A stretch of 64,000 bases of DNA from Capitulum mitella (taxonomy: Eukaryota; Arthropoda; Thecostraca; Pollicipedomorpha; Pollicipedidae). The stretch spans positions 24,307,398-24,371,397 of the forward strand of contig CP099841.1 in the NCBI GenBank assembly GCA_030062745.1, read 5' to 3'. Position 1 is the first letter of the stretch; each line of letters opens with the position of its first letter. A program made the position numbers and the translations under genes. This document shows positions 15,709-61,315 of the stretch, in pieces. The notes beneath the pieces were generated by a model. That model saw only the letters and a program-made list of their open reading frames with translations. It searched no databases and was not told the DNA's origin.

Positions 15709-17044
15709 CAGGGTGGGTCCGAAAGGACTCCCTACTTTGGTTTGGCCACTGTAGGGCTAAAAATCAATTAAACATGAAGTGAAAAATGTTTTTGGAATGA
15801 ACGTACATTGGAAAATTTCATGATATGGTGTTCCTCATTCCTGAAAATGCGCCCGCTCAGCAACAGAGAAAAAGCTCAAGTGGTACAACTTTACTGCAAA
15901 ACAAGATAAATAAGAGGAACTCAGCGCGCTTTCCGATCCACCTTCGACGTCCGTTACGCACACGATCCCAAGACTATCAGAAGACATTCTGAAGTTTTTG
16001 GCTCAGGGTAGCATTGAGAAGCTCATCCGAGGACGCAGTAGGCAGAGGACGCAGCCATCGTCCCCGAAACCCCCCGCGACGTCAATCAGGAAAAATGCCA
16101 CCCAAGTTGACCCCAGTTGCAGTACGGTACGAAGAATTCCCAGAAAAAGATCTTGGACTAACACCATACAAAGTATCGGTCCATTAAGCATTGCCTGGAG
16201 GCGGCAAGACTCAAAGCGTTACTTTTGCAAGCTGGTTCTGTCGTCAGTGCATTGCTGGAGCTGGCTTCATCAAATTTGGTTTAGTGACGAGACCCATTTT
16301 TTGCTGGATGGGGCTGTGAACACTCAAGATTGCAAGACCTGGACCAACATCATCCCATGCACAGTAATGGAAAAGTTCCTGCACGTCGAGAAGGTTACTG
16401 CCTGGCGCGCCTTAGGGGACCATCGGTCCCTTCTGATTCCAGAGCAGCACCGGCTCCACTGTCACTATCACCAGAGAGCGTTACGTCAGGAGTTTAATCG
16501 CCTCTGGATCAGCGTCTGCAAGCACTACGGAGCCTCCCAGAATACCATGTAGTTCCAGCAAGATAGAGCCACATCTCGCACGTCCCATAAGGCGTTTGGC
16601 TGGCTGGAACAACACTTCGGGAGCGCTTCATTAGCCACAAGGCGCACTACGCCTGGCCGGCTCATTCTCCAGACTTGACACCTGTGTACTTCTTCCTGTT
16701 GGGCAATCTCAAGAGCAATGTGTACCAGAAGCCTCCCAAGAGCCTCGAAGAACTCAAGCAGGCAGTGCAGCACGAGGCCCAGAGGATCTCGGCAGACACG
16801 TGAGCCCGGGTGATGGAGGAGGTGAAGAAGCGCGCGGCTCTGTGCGGCAAGCGAGAGGGCTGCCACCTGGAGTATATCCGGTAACTAACATATGAAGCTT
16901 GTCATTGTTTCGAAGTGTATGACAGTTGATTTTATTGTGTTCTCCATGAGTTTTGGATTCGCATGATGAAATGCACATATACAAGGATTATTTGTCCTGT
17001 TATCAGAAACAAAAGGTAAGGGATGCTTTCGGACCCATCACGTG
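15709..17044 (+). mobile_element. dead mariner-like (IS630/Tc1/mariner) transposon with both ends
   Basis: The left end starts CAGGGTGGGTCCGAAAGG directly after a TA. The right end reads CTTTCGGACCCATCACGTG in reverse, followed by CA where a TA would be expected. The inverted repeats continue for nearly 30 bp (GACTCCCTACTTT against GCATCCCTTACCTTT). The 1.3-kb length, TA target and encoded transposase all agree with the superfamily. It is an old copy: the ends differ at several sites and the gene is broken. Confidence 0.85.
15847..16884 (+). pseudogene. mariner-like transposase pseudogene
   Basis: The enzyme would have cut and rejoined the element's own ends in the nucleus. Translation starts MRPLSNREKAQVV, meets a TAA after about 20 codons, and goes on through QRAF and PKTIRRH, the helix-turn-helix part. 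It then shifts frame near 15998 to give STVRRI. The catalytic triad is still readable: SDETHF with D at 16286, FQQDRAT with D at 16562, and SPDLTPVYF with D at 16672, about 36 residues after the second. A TAG at 16550 lies just before FQQD, a frameshift near 16618, and a TGA about 16801. The C-terminal RVMEEVKKRAALC...GCHLEYI ends at a TAA (16882). At least two shifts and three stops make it inactive. Subfamily (DD34D to DD37D range) is uncertain. Confidence 0.85.
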
Positions 17045-17159
17045 CATGATTGTCCTGGCACCAGTTACGATTGGCTTTGTTCTCAAATGCTTAATTTCAG
17101 ACCAAACTTCGACATGTTCTAACGTAAATATCATAAGCTGAGAGAAGTCCAAATCTGAT

Positions 17160-17285
17160 CCAAATCCATGTTTTGAGCATAGTTATCGACCTAGTCCGGA
17201 TCCAGTCCGGCGGACTGTATCGGACTCTAAGATGCGCCGGATTGATCCAGTCCGTTTCGCACACTGGTACTAATGCACTCTACCG
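17160..17285. repeat. GTCCGGATC-type degenerate short repeats
   Basis: Words such as CTAGTCCGGATCCAGTCCGG and GATCCAGTCCG recur within 100 bp and again at 13300-13395. They lie between the mariner end and the hAT remnant. They may be subterminal repeats of the hAT-related element, but I cannot show its ends. Confidence 0.4.
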
Positions 17286-17400
17286 TTAAAATGCATCGTT
17301 AATTATCACCCCGTCACTTCAGAAATCAGCGGAGGAAACAAAGGCGACGGAATTCGTAACAGGTGCAATTGCACCACCATACCTCAAGTGAAGTCGCTCA

Positions 17401-17977
17401 CTATTCCGACAGTATTCCGAGGTGCTGAACGCCTTGGACGCCCGGCTCACTGAGCGATTCTGCCAGCCGGCTTTTGACAACGTGTGAGAGACCGGAAAGC
17501 TTTTGGAGGACGCCGCGGCCGATGGAATCTTCACCGTCCCAAAAGTGGTACCGGATGTGCACGGAGCAGACTTGAACCTGTCACGGCTACAGGTGCAGCT
17601 GAAGATGCTGCCGGACATCTGCCAGCTGCAAGACAAGGGACGCCTCGAGGTGAATGAAATCGCCAGCACAGTGAAGGCCACCAGCACAGGCGGGGCTGTG
17701 GTGCAAAAGATATCGAGTGAACTCATCACCCTGCTCTGGCTCTGCATCCACCCTGTGACCACTGTCGCCTCAGGAAGAACCTTCTCGGTGCTCAGACACA
17801 CCAAAACGTACCTGCGCATCACCATTCCAGGCAAGGCTGAACGCGACTGTAACGGGTCAGCCACGAGGAACGCGGTGGTCCATCCACAAACACGCCACGG
17901 ATGCCCTCGAGCTATCGGCCACCGCCACCGAGTTCAGTGGCGCCAACGACAGCCGCCGAAGCCATTTCGTCGTATAG
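17401..17977 (+). pseudogene. hAT-family transposase C-terminus, broken
   Basis: The frame from 17401 gives EVLNALDARLTERF, crosses a TGA (17485-17487), and continues KLLEDAAADGIF. After a stretch containing VNEIASTVKA it reaches TVASGRTFSVLRHTKTYLR, the hAT dimerisation motif, whose usual form is roughly TASAERSFSALRRIKTYLR. A frameshift after about 17830 moves the tail into another phase, where WSIHKHATDALELSA and a final VV-stop (17975-17977) match the ending common in ZMYM-type hAT proteins. The N-terminal zinc finger and the catalytic core upstream are missing. Two disruptions show it is not functional. The repeat at 17305-17385 just upstream is probably part of the same element. Confidence 0.75.
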
Positions 17978-19139
17978 GTATGCCGAGTTGGCCAGGCAGT
18001 AGTGTCTGAGTGGGTCGAGGTCACGATGCTGCTCACCGTCGCCATCCAGCTGATTCGGGACTGTCCGTTTTCCCGGCCGTCCCACGCGTCCTTCGAGATC
18101 CGCCTGAGCCGCTGTCTTGGCCGCATCAAACATTTCTTGACATGCTGCATCCGTTCGCATTCGCCGGTGCATGCCCTGGCCGTAAACCAAGAAACTGCCC
18201 TGCCTAGAATTACAGAATACATCTACCCTGCAAATATGATTTCAGCATTCATGGTAGAGGCAAAGCAGCTTCTTTACTTTCACCAGCTTAATCTACATAT
18301 GAAATATCAAAAAGTCAAGGAGCGCTGCTGTCCAGAATACTGAACACAGATGCCCTGAAAATGCGATTTTATTTTCATCCTTGCTTTTCGGCAAGGCGGT
18401 ATCTTGACTTTCACCAATTCAGCGTACAATGAAACCATACCGACTGTCTGCTTTTCAGTCGAATGACTTTTTAGTGCGGTGTTTTGCTTCTATTTTCTAA
18501 TTCTGGGTGATTTAATGTTCAGAATTGATAACCTGTGTTATTATGTTTTTATCTTAATTGCTGCGATGCGCGTCTTGATTCTGAAAACGGGGAGGAAGGT
18601 AGGTACTACACTTAGAAACGTGGGAAGCCTGTCCCCCCCCCGTTCCTAAGTCTGTGGGCTTCACCACAAGTTTTTCTAGTCTTCTAGACAAGATGCTGTT
18701 TTGTAAAATAATAACTCATTTTCGGAACAATTTAAATGTCTTCGTGGGGGTTTCAGTGGTGCCAAGTACGCAAGGCACCAAAAGGAGACAGACATAGGTC
18801 AGTTAGTTCATTCTTGGATGCCAAACACCACTGGCTGACGATGAGATGCCAACATATGTCCAAATATATTTGAACAGTTTACCTCACATGTACTGGAAAA
18901 GACCTGGTGGGCATCGTCACCACAGGTCTAACGGTGAAGAAACGGTCTAACGGCCTTTTCCCGAAATCACTGGCGCTAAGGTTGTGCTGGGGATAGGAAA
19001 ACAAAGTTTCTCCCGTTATCGGATCCAATGACCTCATGGGTCAGGAGCTCAGTAAATTCCAGACTGTAGGTGTGTTAGCAGCTACAACATGATCAACTCG
19101 GTATCAAAAACGGCTGTAGTTTGCCTTGATCCAGTATAC
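17978..19139. other. no supported gene; one imperfect inverted repeat
   Basis: A 113-codon frame at 18002-18343 and antisense frames follow the GC-rich hAT end and have no motif. An imperfect inverted repeat lies at about 18610-18651 (ACTTAGAAACGTGGG against CCCCGTTCCTAAGT) around a C-tract. Confidence 0.4.
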
Positions 19140-48399: not shown

Positions 48400-48531
48400 C
48401 TGGTTTCACCAACGCCTTCCCAACGGCGTTTTTGTTTGTTCTGTGTAAGTTATAGTTCTCGAGATATCGGAAGGGCGGTTCTCATGAACCCCCAGCCAGC
48501 GAAGGTGATCCGGAGGCCGGCCCGTCGAGGG
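48400..48531 (-). mobile_element. 5'-end fragment of the TTAA-type MITE
   Basis: TTATAGTTCTCGAGATATCG (48449) followed by a GC-rich stretch and TCGAGGG-TTAA (48532-48535) is the reversed 5' end of the family with a damaged terminal repeat. The rest of the copy is missing or unrecognisable. Confidence 0.5.
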
Positions 48532-48535
48532 TTAA

Positions 48536-50289
48536 GTCTGAGCCCATAAAGTCAGAGTCGGTGAGCTTTAAAGGTGAGCTCCACCTTAACACGTGCTTTG
48601 AACTGAGATGGTTCAGTTGTAGCATTTAGTCTTGAAGAGGCCAATCTGTAACAAACATGTCTCAAAATGCTACGTTTGCGGGAGCTCAAAGCGATTTGTC
48701 ACGGTTCCCATGCGTGTCCAATTTGGCCATGCCTTCCTTACAGCTGTTTTGTGACGTTACGACGAAACGCAGGCCAGTGAACGCTTGCGTTCACTGCGCA
48801 GGCCTGTTTTACGTCCTATCGGCGAATGGTTACGGATCACAGCCTAATTAATTAAAGGGCATCCCTGAGCTTCTAGATATGGTTCAGATAAGTAGGTACT
48901 GAAAATGTTACCAATGCTTTTTTTCAGATGAGTCAGTTCAATTTATGAGAAGTTGACTAAGGTGGAAAATTGTCTTAATTGCGTGCCGAGCCCGACTCTG
49001 AAAAACTACCAGTTGCATTCGACAGAGGCTCCCTTGCCAGCCAGTCCCGACGTCTTCCTCCTTGGAAAGACTCTGAACTTTATTTCTGCTCATAAACGTC
49101 GGAAACCACGTTGTCGCAGATTGAAAGTTCCTTTTGATCTCTTTCTTGATACGGACTAATACACGGAAAATAGAGCGGGAGCCGTCACATCTTTGTCATG
49201 TTTTACGGTTTCGTGCGGCAATCATTTATTTCAGCTTAGACGTTATTATAGACGTGTCCGTAAGCCACGTCAGTGACGCCACCACGTGACCACAGTGGAC
49301 GTTTCTAGAGGACGAAGGAACATTGAAGCAAACTATTTTGAGCTTGACAAAAACATTTTCCAGGTCTGTGATGCCGGCGTCACTGATCTCTTCCGGGGAA
49401 CCGCACGCACTTGCAGTCTAAAATGAAATATGCCCATTTGAAACGTGCTATGAGTCTGCCTATTCTTTGTCTGGTATACTGGAAAACATGTTAGACTAAT
49501 AGCCCTTCAAACGGCCCGTAACCCGCAGCGGTGGTTCATCTTTTCACAAGCTGATGAACGTGATTTCTAGGGTTTTCGACGAGGCTCTTGTGTTCACCAT
49601 TCGCAATCTACAATAAAATCGTATTTTTGAGTGTGTTGGTTTTGCCTTGGACCATGACCTGCGATATACTTCGAAAGACGGATGGATACTTATACTGACA
49701 GAAATCTTGAATCGGTATTAAAACTTTGAATCGAATAAATTCGGGATGAAAACCTTGGAATCGAATGAAATTTGAGCATTAGTCAAAATTTCGAGTAATG
49801 CTACAATAAGCAGCTCGACCATGGTGATACCTCTTATAATGCACCGATGTATCTTGAATAGAGAACGAATCCTTTCGTGTCCCCGGCCCAAAGGTTGAAT
49901 CCTCTGGGCTGGGGCTGGAGAAGGCCGCTATTCAGCTCGTGATAACACAGAATGTGCTTCCTGAAGTGTCGGCGCCGACGACTGTCTGAAATAAACATGG
50001 CCGGCCAGTACGGCTACATCATGTCGGTTTTCCCGTGAACCTCAGCGAACTTCGAACTCGTGAAGGAAAGTTCGCTTACATTGTTTTCGACCGCGTCATC
50101 TGATGCAAACCGATCCCATGTTGTCCTCGGGTTGGCTGCACCACGGAAAATATCGTATTGCTCTGTTGCAAACGCAAGCCGCTTTTCTGCCCCAGGCTGC
50201 CGCTGTGCCATTAACGACCTCATGAATTACCTCGCACGGGCTCACGGTTTAGAATTCCCAGCACGCGCCTTCTTTATCAATTTTCCCTC
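48536..50289. other. no supported gene
   Basis: An imperfect palindrome lies at 48762-48785 (AGTGAACGC, short loop, GCGTTCACT). GAATCG words recur at 49711-49763, as they do in the intron at 59880-60240. Frames of 64-81 codons have no recognised motif; the one at 48953-49159 is discussed under rejected items. Confidence 0.4.
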
Positions 50290-55510: not shown

Positions 55511-55599
55511 GACCGTTGGCCGCGAACAGCCGCTGGACGCTCGCCAGGGAGCCCCTCCGCCCGGCGCAGTCGTTCGATCATCTCGACGCCTGCTGCCAG
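55511..55599 (+). CDS. candidate upstream exon of the unknown gene
   Basis: The acceptor CGTCCTTACAG and strong donor CTGCCAG|GTAAGTG bound 89 nt. Using the frame that ends in phase 0, as the next exon needs, gives 29 open codons ending AQSFDHLDACCQ. The exon then joins in frame to VDISYEV at 57621 across a 2.0-kb intron. Two leading bases must complete a codon from an exon I cannot see. The block is CpG-rich, and a 152-codon minus-strand frame runs through it, so the evidence is the splice sites and the phase only. Confidence 0.4.
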
Positions 55600-55734
55600 G
55601 TAAGTGTGAACGCGCAGCGCTGCGCGTGCACGGCACCACGCCATTGACGACACAGATCCGGCGTCAGCGACACAAATAGTACAAATCAGCCGCCGGGGAA
55701 ACGACACGACTGCCGTCGCGGAGCGGCGTCTCGC

Positions 55735-56115
55735 CGTGACGCACGCAGGCGACGCCGTCAGTGCGCGAATCAACGCCGCCGGTCGGCCGCTCGCCCGCAT
55801 GCCGTCGCACCTGAGCGGCGCCGGCCACGCGCGGCCGACTCCGGGACGTCCCCCGAGGCGGCCCGTCAGCGCCAGCCCTTATAACGACGCCGCCGGCGCC
55901 TGTCCCCCCCCCCGCCGAGCCGGCTCGTCGGAGGCGGCAGCGCCGGAGGCGATCGACCTGCTGGACGTGGCCGCCCTGATGCAATACGTGCCGTGCTCGG
56001 CGGTGGGGTTGCGGGCGGTTGTGGGCGGCGCCGGCCGGTGCGGGGGGAGGGGCGCCGCAGCGAGACGCCTCAGCCCCCCCCCCCCGCGGCCGACCTGGTG
56101 ACGACTCACAGGGGC
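55735..56115. other. CpG island in the first intron of the gene model
   Basis: Very GC-rich, with C-tracts at 55906-55913 and 56075-56085 and open phases on both strands. It could be an internal promoter for a shorter transcript starting before 57621. No initiator or start codon is assignable. Confidence 0.35.
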
Positions 56116-57620
56116 GGTCCGCGCCGCCCTAAGCTCTTCCTGGTAAAGCACTGGTCGTAACGAGCGGACTGGGGGAATGGGAGCCATCCGGACCATCGTT
56201 AGGAAGCTGGCTATTCTGAGGATTTAGACATCGCGATAATTCATCTACCCTCATATACATCACGATAACTGATCACATCATCTGGCAGGGAATTTGGCTC
56301 GTCTTGTGGTGCATTCTGACGAAAAACTTGTCCATGACCTCTTCATCAAAGTTTAATAAACAACGCTAAAACTTACCAAAGATCCACGAAACCAGAACAC
56401 TCAAACCGAACTAACAACATCTCGAACAAATTCCACCGAAATGGTTTTTAGTCAGGCGACAAGCTGACAAGTCTTCCTTGTGTGAAACATTTCGAGTTGG
56501 CTTTGATGGACAGACGGTTATTCAGGACGACAGACAGCAAGATGCCTTTTGCAGACACAGCAGTCATCCGTAGGCGTGGCGAGAGGAGGGGGAAGACAGG
56601 GCATTGGGACGTCGCGTAGGTAATTCTGGCTGCAGTCAAGTTAGCGGCATTTGCGACAACGCCCGCGACGACAGTGTGAGCCCAAAATGCTCGACGAGCA
56701 ACCATCAGATACCAATTAAACGAAATCTCTTGTCATGACCAAATATTGGGCATGTTTCCAGTTCCGATCCAGGCAACGGACTGATCTTTAATTCTGGGAA
56801 TTCTCAGGGTTCACTGATTTTGAACCCACAGTATCGAAGATGATTTATGCGGGGGTTTTGAGGTCTGGCGATGGTCACTGTTCCACCATGGCTTAAGAAT
56901 AAAATCTCTGGTACCATTTGTTTAGCCTCACTACGTCAGTTGCCAATTATAAAGACCTTCTCGTATGAAAACCAGGACGCGGAATACCACTCACTTCATG
57001 TTTTTGCCCCGACAGAGGTGATTGTCTGAGCTTGACTTTACGCCAAAATTCCCGTCGTCGTTTTTGGCCCAGACTCGACTTTTAGACGAGGTCAAGACTT
57101 ATGCTGGGTATGACCTGTACCGTGTCAAGACTTATGTGGGCTGTGACATCTGGTAAAACGGTGGCCTCTATTATGCCACGACTTGTTTGGGCTATGACAG
57201 GGACAGATTAGCGGCAAGCTGTGAAAAATATGTGTGATCCTTCAGACGGGAGCAGGAATGCCTGTTCTCGTCTATGCAGAATCCAAGCGAAATCACAGTG
57301 TTCGTAACGGAGGTCGAGTCGCTGTGTCTGGGAAACATCGTGCCCCTGGTGGAAGACATTATTGATTTACCCCAACTGCGCAAGCATTCTACAGACGCTT
57401 CATCGCAAACCCCGCCCAACGTCTTGAAGTCGGGCGCGCTGTCTGCACGAAGCCGAGTTCCACCGTTTGATCAGCCGTCAAGTGCCATTGGCCCTGACAC
57501 ACGCTGATGACTTAAGCCAGGTTAATTGCGTGTCATAAGCAGAAGCGCGGCTCTTTCTATGTCTGAACGTGCCAGTATGGCCGTTGCCATTCCGCTGACG
57601 TCACGCGCTCCTGTCTCCAG

Positions 57621-57824
57621 GTTGACATTTCGTACGAGGTGATATCGTATGATTCTGACAACGAGATGGGCCGGCGGCGGCCGCAGCTGACGAGGAACAA
57701 GCGGGGCACCCCTGTCTACTCCAAGGAAGACATCCGAGAACAGTACTGCATCAACGACAAGGAGGTGCACGTGCTGGAGAGGATCACCGGCCGCTCCATC
57801 CTCAACTGCTTCTCCGAACGCAAC
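57621..57824 (+). CDS. core exon 1 of an unrecognised, probably nuclear protein
   Basis: The acceptor CTCCTGTCTCCAG and donor CGCAAC|GTAAGAG bound exactly 68 codons, phase 0 at both ends. The peptide starts VDISYEVISYDSDNEMGRRR and continues RNKRGTPVYSKEDIREQYC and NDKEVHVLERITGRSILN. It mixes an acidic patch, a basic patch and a predicted helix. Codon use is GC-rich at third positions (for example GAG GTG CAC GTG CTG GAG), unlike the AT-leaning flanks, which is the best sign of coding. I do not recognise the family. A TGACGTCA palindrome lies just upstream at 57596-57603. Confidence 0.65.
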
Positions 57825-58426
57825 GTAAGAGCTTGTATGGTGCGTCACAGTATCACGGAAGCATCAGATACGGCGCCGGGTCTGCGAACGGCTCCCCGAC
57901 CGCTCGCAGGCCGGGCGGCCGCAGATGTACATTCTCTCGTGCCGTCAGTCTGCTGGGATGAGCCGGCTTAACCTCGACTGTTCCGCTGATACCTCATTTA
58001 CAGTCGTTTTCGGAAATGCTCTGCCTCATCCCCGACTATCCCAGGTAGCGTCAGGCCTCATCCCTGGCCATCTCACGGACGCATCATCCACTTCTGATAC
58101 GTTCAGGGCACACCCGGCCCCTGGCCATTCAGAGAAACATCACGCCCTATCCCCTGTCGCTCTTTGGTTGTCTGGACCCTTATCGATCTTGGAATCATGC
58201 TGAGTTCCCAGAATTCTCGAGCGTGCCAGTGTCTATGCATCTGGCTGCTCGGCGGCTGCTTTTGTTAAACGTCGCAGCAACGGAGAGCGGTCGTCATTTT
58301 CCTAACACGCAGACAGATAATATGCAAACTTTCCTCACTTGATGGCGTTATTTGTAGTGGTGCAGTGTTGCAATGCGGTGGTGTCGACATACCTTTCACA
58401 AACTGAATGTGATCCCTTCTTTTCAG

Positions 58427-58587
58427 CCGAGTCCATGCAGGAAACAGAATCTCTTAACGTCTTGCTATAAGCGCAAACGAAAAGCCGACCAACCAGGAGA
58501 GTACGCAAGACCTCTTCCTAGACCGAAAAAGACCTGGCAGGGTTCTGAAGATGATTTTGACGAACAGTTTTTCAGACGGAGGCCCAG
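58427..58587 (+). CDS. core exon 2 of the unrecognised gene
   Basis: A strong acceptor (GATCCCTTCTTTTCAG) and a donor AGGCCCAG|GTATTG bound 161 nt, entering in phase 0 and leaving after two bases. The peptide includes a basic run, YKRKRKADQPGEYARPLP, that resembles a nuclear localisation signal. An acidic segment, WQGSEDDFDEQFF, and then RRRP follow. The two trailing bases AG join the first G of the exon at 59357 to give arginine. The donor has a weaker +3 to +6 context than those of the neighbouring exons. Confidence 0.6.
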
Positions 58588-59356
58588 GTATTGTGTGCTT
58601 CACATACGGAAAACTGTGCAGAGCAGTGTACACGGGAGAGCGAACAAAACCGAACCAGTCTCTTAAGAGGCAATTCAACGATAAAAACAACGAATAGGAC
58701 ATAGGAATAGGAAGCAAATAGGCAAAACATACTCGTTTCTAAGCATCAACCAAAAACCTGCGTTAATGTAGCTTTTCAGTTACTGACAAACTTTTCTTTA
58801 ACGTTGTAGTCAAATGAAATACACGTTTGCGTCCACGACGGAAACACATTAATTGTGCTCACATCGTAAGCTTGTTCAGTTTATTGGCCAGGTCAGTCCG
58901 TAGAAGATTCCAACCCATTTGCCATTGCTAAAAGTCGTGAGTTCAGGCACATCCACCCAATATCCAGTCCTGCGCCTATTCAGCACAGCAGGTACACCAC
59001 TTCGTTAGTTCCGGCTGAGCTTCCCTGCATCGACGGCTCTCTCAGCACCGCGCCACGTGGAGCCACAATAGCATGCCGCGATGCATAAACGACGCCTCGC
59101 CGAGGTGCGGCGGATCCGGCGCGGCGCGTCTGTTTGCGCGCGGCCATTGTGGCGCGCGGCCGATTGCCGCGCTGGCAGCGGCGCGCTAATCTGGCCGGCC
59201 AATCTGGCGCTGCCGCGGCCGGACACCGTCCTGGCAGCCGGCGCGGCCGCGGCCACAATGCGGTGCCCCTCCCGGGGGAATCGCGGCGAGCGAGCGAGGC
59301 GGTCTGTCCAGTCCCCTGCGGCCGCCGCTAACAATGTGCCCCTCTCTGTGTGCCAG

Positions 59357-59414
59357 GGTCTTCTGTTATACGGATCCCAAGCGGTACACGTGGGCCGAGG
59401 GAGATCTGGCCAGG
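59357..59414 (+). CDS. core exon 3 of the unrecognised gene
   Basis: The acceptor CTGTGTGCCAG and a near-ideal donor GCCAGG|GTGAGTAAG bound 58 nt. The first base completes the split codon from 58587; 19 codons follow, VFCYTDPKRYTWAEGDLAR, ending in phase 0. The aromatic-rich peptide and perfect phase match are why I trust the join. It lies directly after a CpG-rich intronic stretch (59085-59335). Confidence 0.6.
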
Positions 59415-59879
59415 GTGAGTAAGCCAGGCTCGATCTCGATTCTTTGGTCTGGGCGTGAGTGGTGTTTGTTGGCATTGTGTTACGAGGGCAGAGTTTCCAG
59501 GACGCTTAAAACAATACGAATTAGTTAAGACAGTTGTGTATGTGTGTGTTTGCGTGCCGCACAAATGTGTAGTGGCAAATACAAGAATAGAGACAATGAT
59601 GGGAGAGGGCGGATGAAAACCGGGTGATGGCGACGGAGGATAAAGGGTCCATGAACTCTCCAGGGTAACTAGGGATTCCAAGCTTTTTTGTATTCAAAGT
59701 ATAATTCCAGTCATTTACCCCCAGCCTGAACATCTCACAGACGTTTTCTGCAATTTAAACGAGCAAGGTACAAAGACGTATGAAAGGCGCAACTGTTCTG
59801 CACAACACAGGACTCATTTGTATGACGTGCAGTTATTAGTCGTGCCTAGAAGAAAGACCATTACCAAAGCACGACGTAC

Positions 59880-60240
59880 TTGTATAGATCTGACTTGAGC
59901 TCGATTCCATCGGAATCAGAATCGACTCTGGAATCGAGCCCGTTCCGGCCAGAGTGACAATAGAAGTCGACCCCGCTGACAGTGCCAGAATCATGATGGG
60001 AGCTGAATCACACGGTTGTTTACGGCATAAGAATTGGTATCTGTTCCAATGGCTTAATCCAATCCAATGCACTCTAGTGAAATCAACTCCGTAATCTAGT
60101 CATTTCATTTTGAGTTCGAATCGGAATCGATTCAGTTTTGGGAAACAGCGTTGATTCAGAATCTGAATCGATTCAGCAAGCCGCGAATCAGATTTGGAAT
60201 CCCCTCCTCCCCCAAGTGGAATCGAGCTCAAGTTTGGAAT
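59880..60240. repeat. degenerate GAATCGATTC-type repeats in an intron
   Basis: Words such as GAATCGATTCAG, GGAATCAGAATCG and GAATCTGAATCGATTCAG recur many times on both strands over about 360 bp, with weaker echoes at 49711-49763. The symmetry of the word makes this strand-neutral. No element ends were found. Confidence 0.6.
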
Positions 60241-60603
60241 ATGCCAATTTCGAATTTACTTCCGGTAAACAATTCGCTTATAGAAATGGGTCCTGCAGCT
60301 CACTTTACACTTCTTGAAATTTCCCCCGTATTTCATTGTTCCTGGAACTGCAGCACAGATATTAAATTAACCGACCATTTTTGAGGCCGTCGACATTTTC
60401 TTTCTTTTCACCGTCAGTTCTTTCTCGTGACATTTTGCTCACCACTGTTGCCCTTTACCCCGACACCTCTTCATCTGCCTTCCAGTCTGCCCCGCCCCGC
60501 GCCGTCCCGCCGGCTTGCCGCCGTGTCGCTGACGACGTGTACTGACGGGCCCGCTGACGGCGTGTACTGACGAGCCCGCTGACGGCGTGCGCTCCGGTTG
60601 CAG

Positions 60604-60718
60604 GGCCGCCAGCCGCGGCCACGCTCGCCGGACGCTGGCCGCCGGCCAAACCAGCTGCCGCTGCGCGACGACGCCGGCCGGCCGCCGCTCGCTAGACGAC
60701 GCAACGGCAGCGCCGACG
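60604..60718 (+). CDS. probable penultimate exon of the unrecognised gene
   Basis: The acceptor GCTCCGGTTGCAG and donor GACG|GTCAGT bound 115 nt, phase 0 to phase 1. The peptide is arginine-, proline- and glycine-rich (GRQPRPRSPDAGRRPN then LPLRDDAGRPPLARRR). It lies in CpG-dense DNA, where open frames are cheap, and its pyrimidine tract is poor. Its support is that it supplies exactly the phase needed to enter the next exon in its only long open frame. Skipping it would end the protein after nine more residues. Confidence 0.35.
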
Positions 60719-60855
60719 GTCAGTCACGTGACGCCGGCCGTCAGCTGACGCCGCCGCCCGGCCGTCGGCCAGGGAGGAGGGGTGACCTCCGGACGCGTTC
60801 GCATGGCTGGTGATGGCGCCGATTTAGTCGGGCCCGTTGATGGGTTTCCTTGCAG

Positions 60856-61157
60856 GGTCGATACACATCGCGGGCGTGTCGGTAGATGACGCTCGGTGCC
60901 GGAATCGTTATGGTGTGCTGTTATTTAACGGACCGTCGTCCTGGATCCTCATTAAAAAAGGTTCGTTGAGGTTGATCCTCATTCCGTTATTTTTATCTCA
61001 GCCATGCGGTGACCGATTAAGGTTTTCTGCATTCCCCTATACGTCTCCGGACCTCCCCAGTGCCTCTGCTCCATCGCGAATAGAAGAATTGTTCCTATTC
61101 GATGTACGGAGCCTATTACCCACCCACTTACAACAAAGTCCTGACAAAATATTATAG
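60856..61157 (+). CDS. probable terminal exon of the unrecognised gene
   Basis: A good acceptor (GATGGGTTTCCTTGCAG) precedes two bases that complete the codon begun at 60718. About 99 codons then follow to a TAG at 61155-61157. The peptide begins SIHIAGVSVDDARCRNRYG and is less biased than the previous exon. From 57621 the five exons total 840 nt, 280 codons including the stop. A polyadenylation signal follows 150 nt downstream. I see no domain. Confidence 0.4.
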
Positions 61158-61305
61158 CAAATGGATCTTCCATTTAGCGGGCACTTTGTGTATCATTACG
61201 TTCGTGGGAACACGAAGCCATTATCCGCGGCGCTGATGCTGACATTGGCGAAAATAGGACATGAGCGCCATTGTTTCGGAACCACGTTTTTGAGTCTCCC
61301 AGGCT

Positions 61306-61315
61306 AATAAATAAA
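61306..61315 (+). terminator. polyadenylation signal AATAAATAAA
   Basis: Two overlapping AATAAA hexamers about 150 nt after the TAG at 61157, a usual 3' UTR distance. GT-rich sequence follows (TCGGTTGTTTTTAATAAAAT at about 61331). In AT-rich DNA the hexamer is common, so the support comes from its position. Confidence 0.45.

What the first reader, a model, noticed from the sequence alone, without database searches (positions are those of the whole stretch)
55511..61315. An unrecognised multi-exon gene reconstructed from splice phase
Core exons at 57621-57824, 58427-58587 and 59357-59414 have good splice sites, and their phases fit without adjustment (0-0, 0-2, 2-0). Exons at 60604-60718 and 60856-61157 continue the frame to a stop, and an AATAAA follows. 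The peptide has a KRKRK-type basic run, acidic patches and an aromatic YTDPKRYTW segment, and matches no family I know. It may be a lineage-specific nuclear protein.
Basis: partly seen in the sequence, partly recalled or inferred. Interest (0 to 1): 0.75.

Follow-up and report, generated by a model that had tools for sequence, protein, structure and literature searches.

The report
First exons of a larger gene
The sequence holds a few real protein-coding exons that were joined to a false ending; they most likely form the front of a longer scaffold-protein gene that continues beyond the window, so the finding is mostly a matter of gene annotation.

Summary
The five named exons have the stated splice borders and phases. 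By codon composition, splice strength and shuffled controls, 57621-57824 is a real coding exon, 59357-59414 probably is, and so is 55511-55599, which enters 57621 in phase. The exon 58427-58587, which carries the KRKRK run and the acidic patch, lacks the very high GC3 of this genome's exons (0.45; 0 of 40 sampled family-defined exons are at or below 0.50) and is unproven. Beyond the window another strong exon (71892-72018, window numbering continued) is followed on the same strand by exons of a protein with one PDZ and two PH domains, stopping at 134252. The core is most likely the 5' part of that gene; a separate orphan gene is the main rival. The core found no relative in Pfam, PDB, IMG/VR, GTDB genomes or elsewhere in its own genome; other animals could not be searched. 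The genome is perhaps a barnacle's. Low interest.

The parts
55511..55599 (+). Coding exon, enters with 2 bases of a split codon, leaves in phase 0: PLAANSRWTLAREPLRPAQSFDHLDACCQ
   Evidence: GC3 0.93, best-ranked donor of the window; score 4.0 against a shuffle maximum of 3.4. It lies in GC-rich DNA, and the trained codon model gives only +1.9 bits.
57621..57824 (+). Coding exon, phase 0 to 0, the best supported of the set; an in-frame ATG with a good context lies at 57666
   Evidence: GC3 0.84; +27 bits under the trained codon model; score 4.5 against a shuffle maximum of 3.4; single copy at DNA level; ATG at 57666.
58427..58587 (+). Doubtful bridging exon, phase 0 to 2, with the KRKRK run and the acidic patch
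   Evidence: One of 3 possible bridges from 57824 to 59357; GC3 0.45 and -64.8 bits under the trained codon model; the free gene chain preferred another bridge, 59046-59104.
59357..59414 (+). Probable short coding exon: VFCYTDPKRYTWAEGDLAR, leaves in phase 0; alternatively the end of a first exon starting at ATG 59334
   Evidence: Acceptor top 0.1%, donor top 0.4%; GC3 0.74; score 3.0, reached 3 times in 8 shuffles of 290 kb; codon model -1.3 bits; ATG 59334.
60604..60718 (+).
   Evidence: Best single phase-0 exon after 57824 in 57825-61000 by the mixed codon score, 15.6, but in DNA of 81% GC where two frames score alike; one of 3 bridges from 59414 to 71892.

Best explanation
Most likely the gene runs past the window (exon 71892-72018, then 95479 onward) to a stop at 134252 in continued window numbering (C3:24441649), about 79 kb in all, and encodes a long scaffold protein with one PDZ and two PH domains. 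Shown: the coding signal of these exons; the PDZ and the last PH above Pfam's cut-offs; the first PH as two halves below the cut-off; all on one strand. Inferred: that the core and the domain exons share one transcript; and the mechanism, from general knowledge of the domains: PH domains hold the protein at phosphoinositide-bearing membranes, the PDZ domain binds the C-terminal tails of partners, and the core exons supply a flexible charged N-terminal stretch.
For: Coding signal of 55511, 57621 and 71892 above every shuffle and of 59357 above nearly all. In 290 kb these four, the downstream domain exons and a few weak calls are the plus-strand calls between -66 kb and 134 kb. PDZ E 3.8e-13, last PH E 1.4e-15, first PH halves E 0.009 and 0.004, joined exons and the stop at 134252. 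Phase-compatible bridges exist: 3 candidates from 59414 to 71892, 22 from 72018 to 95479.
Against: No bridge between 59414 and 71892 or between 72018 and 95479 has convincing composition. Possible separate first exons of the downstream gene start at ATG 95499, 102177 and 102303. Reading 71892 through its donor gives a stop at 72022, and 57621 through its donor a stop at 57971, so either could be a last exon. The free gene chain did not join the two parts, though it also broke up the domain gene. No transcript evidence.
Confidence: 0.48

Rival explanations
1. The core exons, perhaps with 71892-72018, are a separate smaller gene of unknown family that ends before 95 kb; the PDZ-PH-PH gene is its neighbour.
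For: First-exon candidates for the neighbour at 95499, 102177 and 102303, and possible read-through stops at 57971 and 72022; 23 kb without a convincing exon between 72018 and 95479.
Against: Apart from those read-throughs, the last-exon candidates after 59414 are short or weak in composition; the read-through stop at 72022 follows almost automatically from a GTGAGT donor in that phase.
Confidence: 0.37
2. One reading: a five-exon gene ending at 61157.
For: Borders and phases fit; 60604 is the best single phase-0 exon of the stretch.
Against: 60856-61157 has GC3 0.50 over 100 codons and -139 bits; tails as long arise in 46 of 400 shuffles; 58427 also lacks coding composition.
Confidence: 0.05
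3. A decayed gene or chance pattern with no protein product.
For: 58427 shows no coding composition; the 120 kb upstream has almost no exon calls.
Against: 57621 keeps one open frame with GC3 0.84 and strong splice sites, and 55511, 59357 and 71892 add to it.
Confidence: 0.1

Closest known systems
PDZ and pleckstrin homology domains 1 (Pdzph1); name and layout recalled, its sequence not compared here
   Same: One PDZ followed by two PH domains and no other Pfam domain found in the parts scanned
   Different: Orthology untested; the core exons of this finding have no counterpart known to me in it
PDZ domains of P-Rex2 and ARHGEF11 (Rac/Rho exchange factors)
   Same: Best PDB sequence matches of the PDZ, E 1.3e-11 each (query with one guessed residue at the junction)
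   Different: No RhoGEF (DH) domain in the 5 large exon pieces scanned by Pfam at E up to 1; the small exons were scanned only in part
PH domains of PLEKHA4, SKAP2, cytohesin-3 and IPCEF1
   Same: PDB matches of the last PH, E 1.2e-7 to 9.2e-6
   Different: Similarity at the level of the domain only

Membership tests
Protein-coding gene of this genome | Exons with the genome's high GC3 | tested here: met
   57621, 55511 and 59357 have 0.84, 0.93 and 0.74 against 0.54-0.98 in 40 sampled family-defined exons; 58427 (0.45) and 60856 (0.50) do not meet it
Protein-coding gene of this genome | Spliced transcripts | not testable with these tools
   No transcript data
Lineage-specific nuclear protein | No relatives outside the lineage | tested here: inconclusive
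   No relative in Pfam, PDB, IMG/VR or GTDB genomes, but no other animal genome could be searched
Lineage-specific nuclear protein | A nuclear localisation signal in a real exon | tested here: inconclusive
   The KRKRK run lies in 58427-58587, the exon without coding composition
PDZ-PH-PH scaffold (Pdzph1-like) | PDZ and two PH domains in the gene | tested here: met
   PDZ E 3.8e-13 and last PH E 1.4e-15 above cut-offs; first PH only as two halves below the cut-off; applies to the downstream exons
PDZ-PH-PH scaffold (Pdzph1-like) | The core exons belong to the same transcript | tested here: inconclusive
   Same strand and possible phase bridges, no convincing bridge
Pipsqueak-type helix-turn-helix protein | Rest of the domain in a following exon | tested here: inconclusive

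The most novel reading that the evidence does not exclude
The core exons are a gene of their own, specific to this lineage (for example barnacles), with no relatives elsewhere and an unknown role.
Probability: 0.2. Interest if true: 0.3.

Novelty: new member of a known kind. Interest (0 to 1): 0.13.

Why it matters
It corrects a gene model: several exons are real but the ending is not. It also gives a simple yardstick for this genome (sampled coding exons have GC3 near 0.9) by which candidate exons can be accepted or dropped. Beyond annotation the consequence is small.

Tried and rejected
Pipsqueak helix-turn-helix reading of YTWAEGDLAR: pattern and rough profile gave no convincing hit. A likeness to the C-terminal domain of DNTTIP1, recalled only and not aligned: not supported, as phmmer listed no PDB chain for the core at E up to 10. 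Transposon or repeat origin: exon 57621 has one match in the genome, itself; 60590-61180 has itself and a 50-base partial match on C1; the same search for 58400-58620 did not complete. Second copy left by a genome duplication: the core's only other matches have E 1.4 and 4.9; for the downstream gene the best other match is a PDZ-region match on C1 at 33% identity, E 1.1e-8. Telomere repeats as a clue to the phylum: 7 contig-end stretches, one wholly N, one isolated CCTAACCTAA in another; uninformative. PADLOC scan of the core: nothing, and not needed. Plasmid matches at E 4 and 5: dismissed. Structure prediction of exon 57621 never started: queue full at all five tries. Rfam and tRNA scans of the window: nothing.

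Full report
What was checked. The window lies at C3:24307398-24371397, plus strand, of a 477,042,490-base assembly in 16 contigs.

A yardstick for coding. I took 20 of 123 kinase matches and 20 of 62 BTB matches listed in the same genome, choosing stretches of modest length without internal stops. Their GC3 is 0.69-0.98 (kinase) and 0.54-0.98 (BTB); 0 of 40 are at or below 0.50 and 1 of 40 is at or below 0.60. Against this, 57621-57824 has 0.84, 55511-55599 0.93, 59357-59414 0.74 and 60604-60718 0.84, the last in DNA of 81% GC where two frames score alike; 58427-58587 has 0.45 and 60856-61157 has 0.50. A caution: two unconfirmed acidic stretches of the downstream gene have 0.69 and 0.54, so fast-changing exons may fall lower, and exon 58427 is doubtful rather than excluded. 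Both samples are conserved domains, which may favour high GC3.

Chance controls. A codon model was trained on 24 neighbouring exons (1,417 codons) that had themselves been picked by an earlier composition scan, which is why the family-defined exons were added. It gave 57621 +27.0 bits, 55511 +1.9, 59357 -1.3, 58427 -64.8, 60604 +12.1 and 60856 -139.2; with splice sites 57621 (run on to another donor at 57839) scored 21.1, against a maximum of 14.3 in six shuffles of 290 kb. A second scan, by GC3 and splice sites, reported 27 exons on the plus and 22 on the minus strand of 290 kb; eight shuffles of the plus strand gave 2 to 9 each, best score 3.4. The exons 57621, 71892, 55511 and 59357 scored 4.5, 4.2, 4.0 and 3.0; three shuffle hits in all eight reached 3.0. 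Splice ranks among 3,529 AG and 3,635 GT sites: 55511 top 1.6% and best-ranked donor; 57621 0.6% and 2.8%; 58427 4.4% and 5.5%; 59357 0.1% and 0.4%; 60604 7.4% and 3.1%; 60856 acceptor 2.8%. A tail of at least 138 codons after 59414 arises in 46 of 400 shuffles, and AATAAA occurs 36 times on the plus strand of the window.

What lies around. From -66 kb to 55 kb the plus strand holds one exon-like call, at 17593, in what looks to me like a transposon remnant; a Pfam scan of nine open frames of the window listed nothing but MscL at E 0.08. Beyond the window, in continued numbering, come 71892-72018 and then candidate exons at 95479, 102426, 102891-104471, 104622-105298, 112398, 121340, 122328, 122954, 124394, an open stretch from about 125.4 to 128.5 kb, 128785, 132146, 133334 and 134198-134252. 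They encode a PDZ domain (E 3.8e-13), a first PH seen as two halves below the cut-off (E 0.009 and 0.004) and a last PH (E 1.4e-15) that ends in a stop. Five large pieces of these exons gave no Pfam family at E up to 1. Farther on are exons matching thioredoxin, Ras, HMG-CoA reductase, carboxylesterase, HNH and, below the cut-off, PWWP families. The PDZ-PH-PH layout recalls Pdzph1; that name and layout come from memory. Two paper searches listed 6 and 5 papers; I saw the listings only and opened none.

Are the core and the PDZ-PH-PH exons one gene? Possible starts of a separate downstream gene lie at 95499, 102177 and 102303, and reading 57621 or 71892 through their donors gives stops at 57971 and 72022; the latter is nearly forced by a GTGAGT donor in that phase. 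The chain did not join the two parts, but it also split the domain gene.

Relatives. The core has no Pfam match at E up to 10, and exons 55511 plus 57621 and exon 71892 have none at E up to 5; no PDB match at E up to 10; no relative in IMG/VR (4 pattern hits, none confirmed) or in GTDB species genomes (41 pattern hits, none confirmed). In its own genome the core matches its own three exons and two places at E 1.4 and 4.9. None of these collections is one of animal genomes, so lineage specificity is untested.

The organism. Sixteen contigs, 477 Mb, C1 of 45.52 Mb and C16 of 18.35 Mb resemble the barnacle Capitulum mitella (16 chromosomes, 482.98 Mb of scaffolds, longest 45.43 Mb, shortest 19.66 Mb; PMC8416341, passages seen); another assembly of that species has 512.06 Mb (PMC11331182, passages seen). 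Two closely similar kinase exon pairs among the 20 sampled would fit the genome duplication reported for barnacles (PMC11331182, highlights in the listing and passages seen). This is suggestive only.

Verdict. Several real exons, an unsupported ending, an unproven nuclear role; an annotation matter of low general interest.

Noticed in passing
window 48496-48573, + strand: Possible further upstream exon (SEGDPEAGPSRVKSEPIKSESVSFK) whose exit phase fits 55511; GC3 0.64, weak support.
   Followed up: partly
window 15914-18006, + strand: Open frames that look to me like remnants of DNA transposons (recalled motifs); Pfam lists nothing at E up to 0.1.
   Followed up: partly
C3:24402876-24441649 (window numbering 95479-134252): Exons of a long PDZ-PH-PH protein with two TQT motifs that recall dynein light chain binding sites (STQTE, SATQTE; motif recalled).
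   Followed up: partly
L038/L039 and L048/L051: Closely similar kinase exon pairs on different contigs, as an old genome duplication would leave.
   Followed up: no
L070 and L074 (contig C14): Nearly identical BTB exons about 1.2 Mb apart, a likely recent duplication.
   Followed up: no
C3, window numbering 168894-173546: Exons of a protein with an HNH_3 endonuclease match (E 1e-7), unusual in an animal gene.
   Followed up: no
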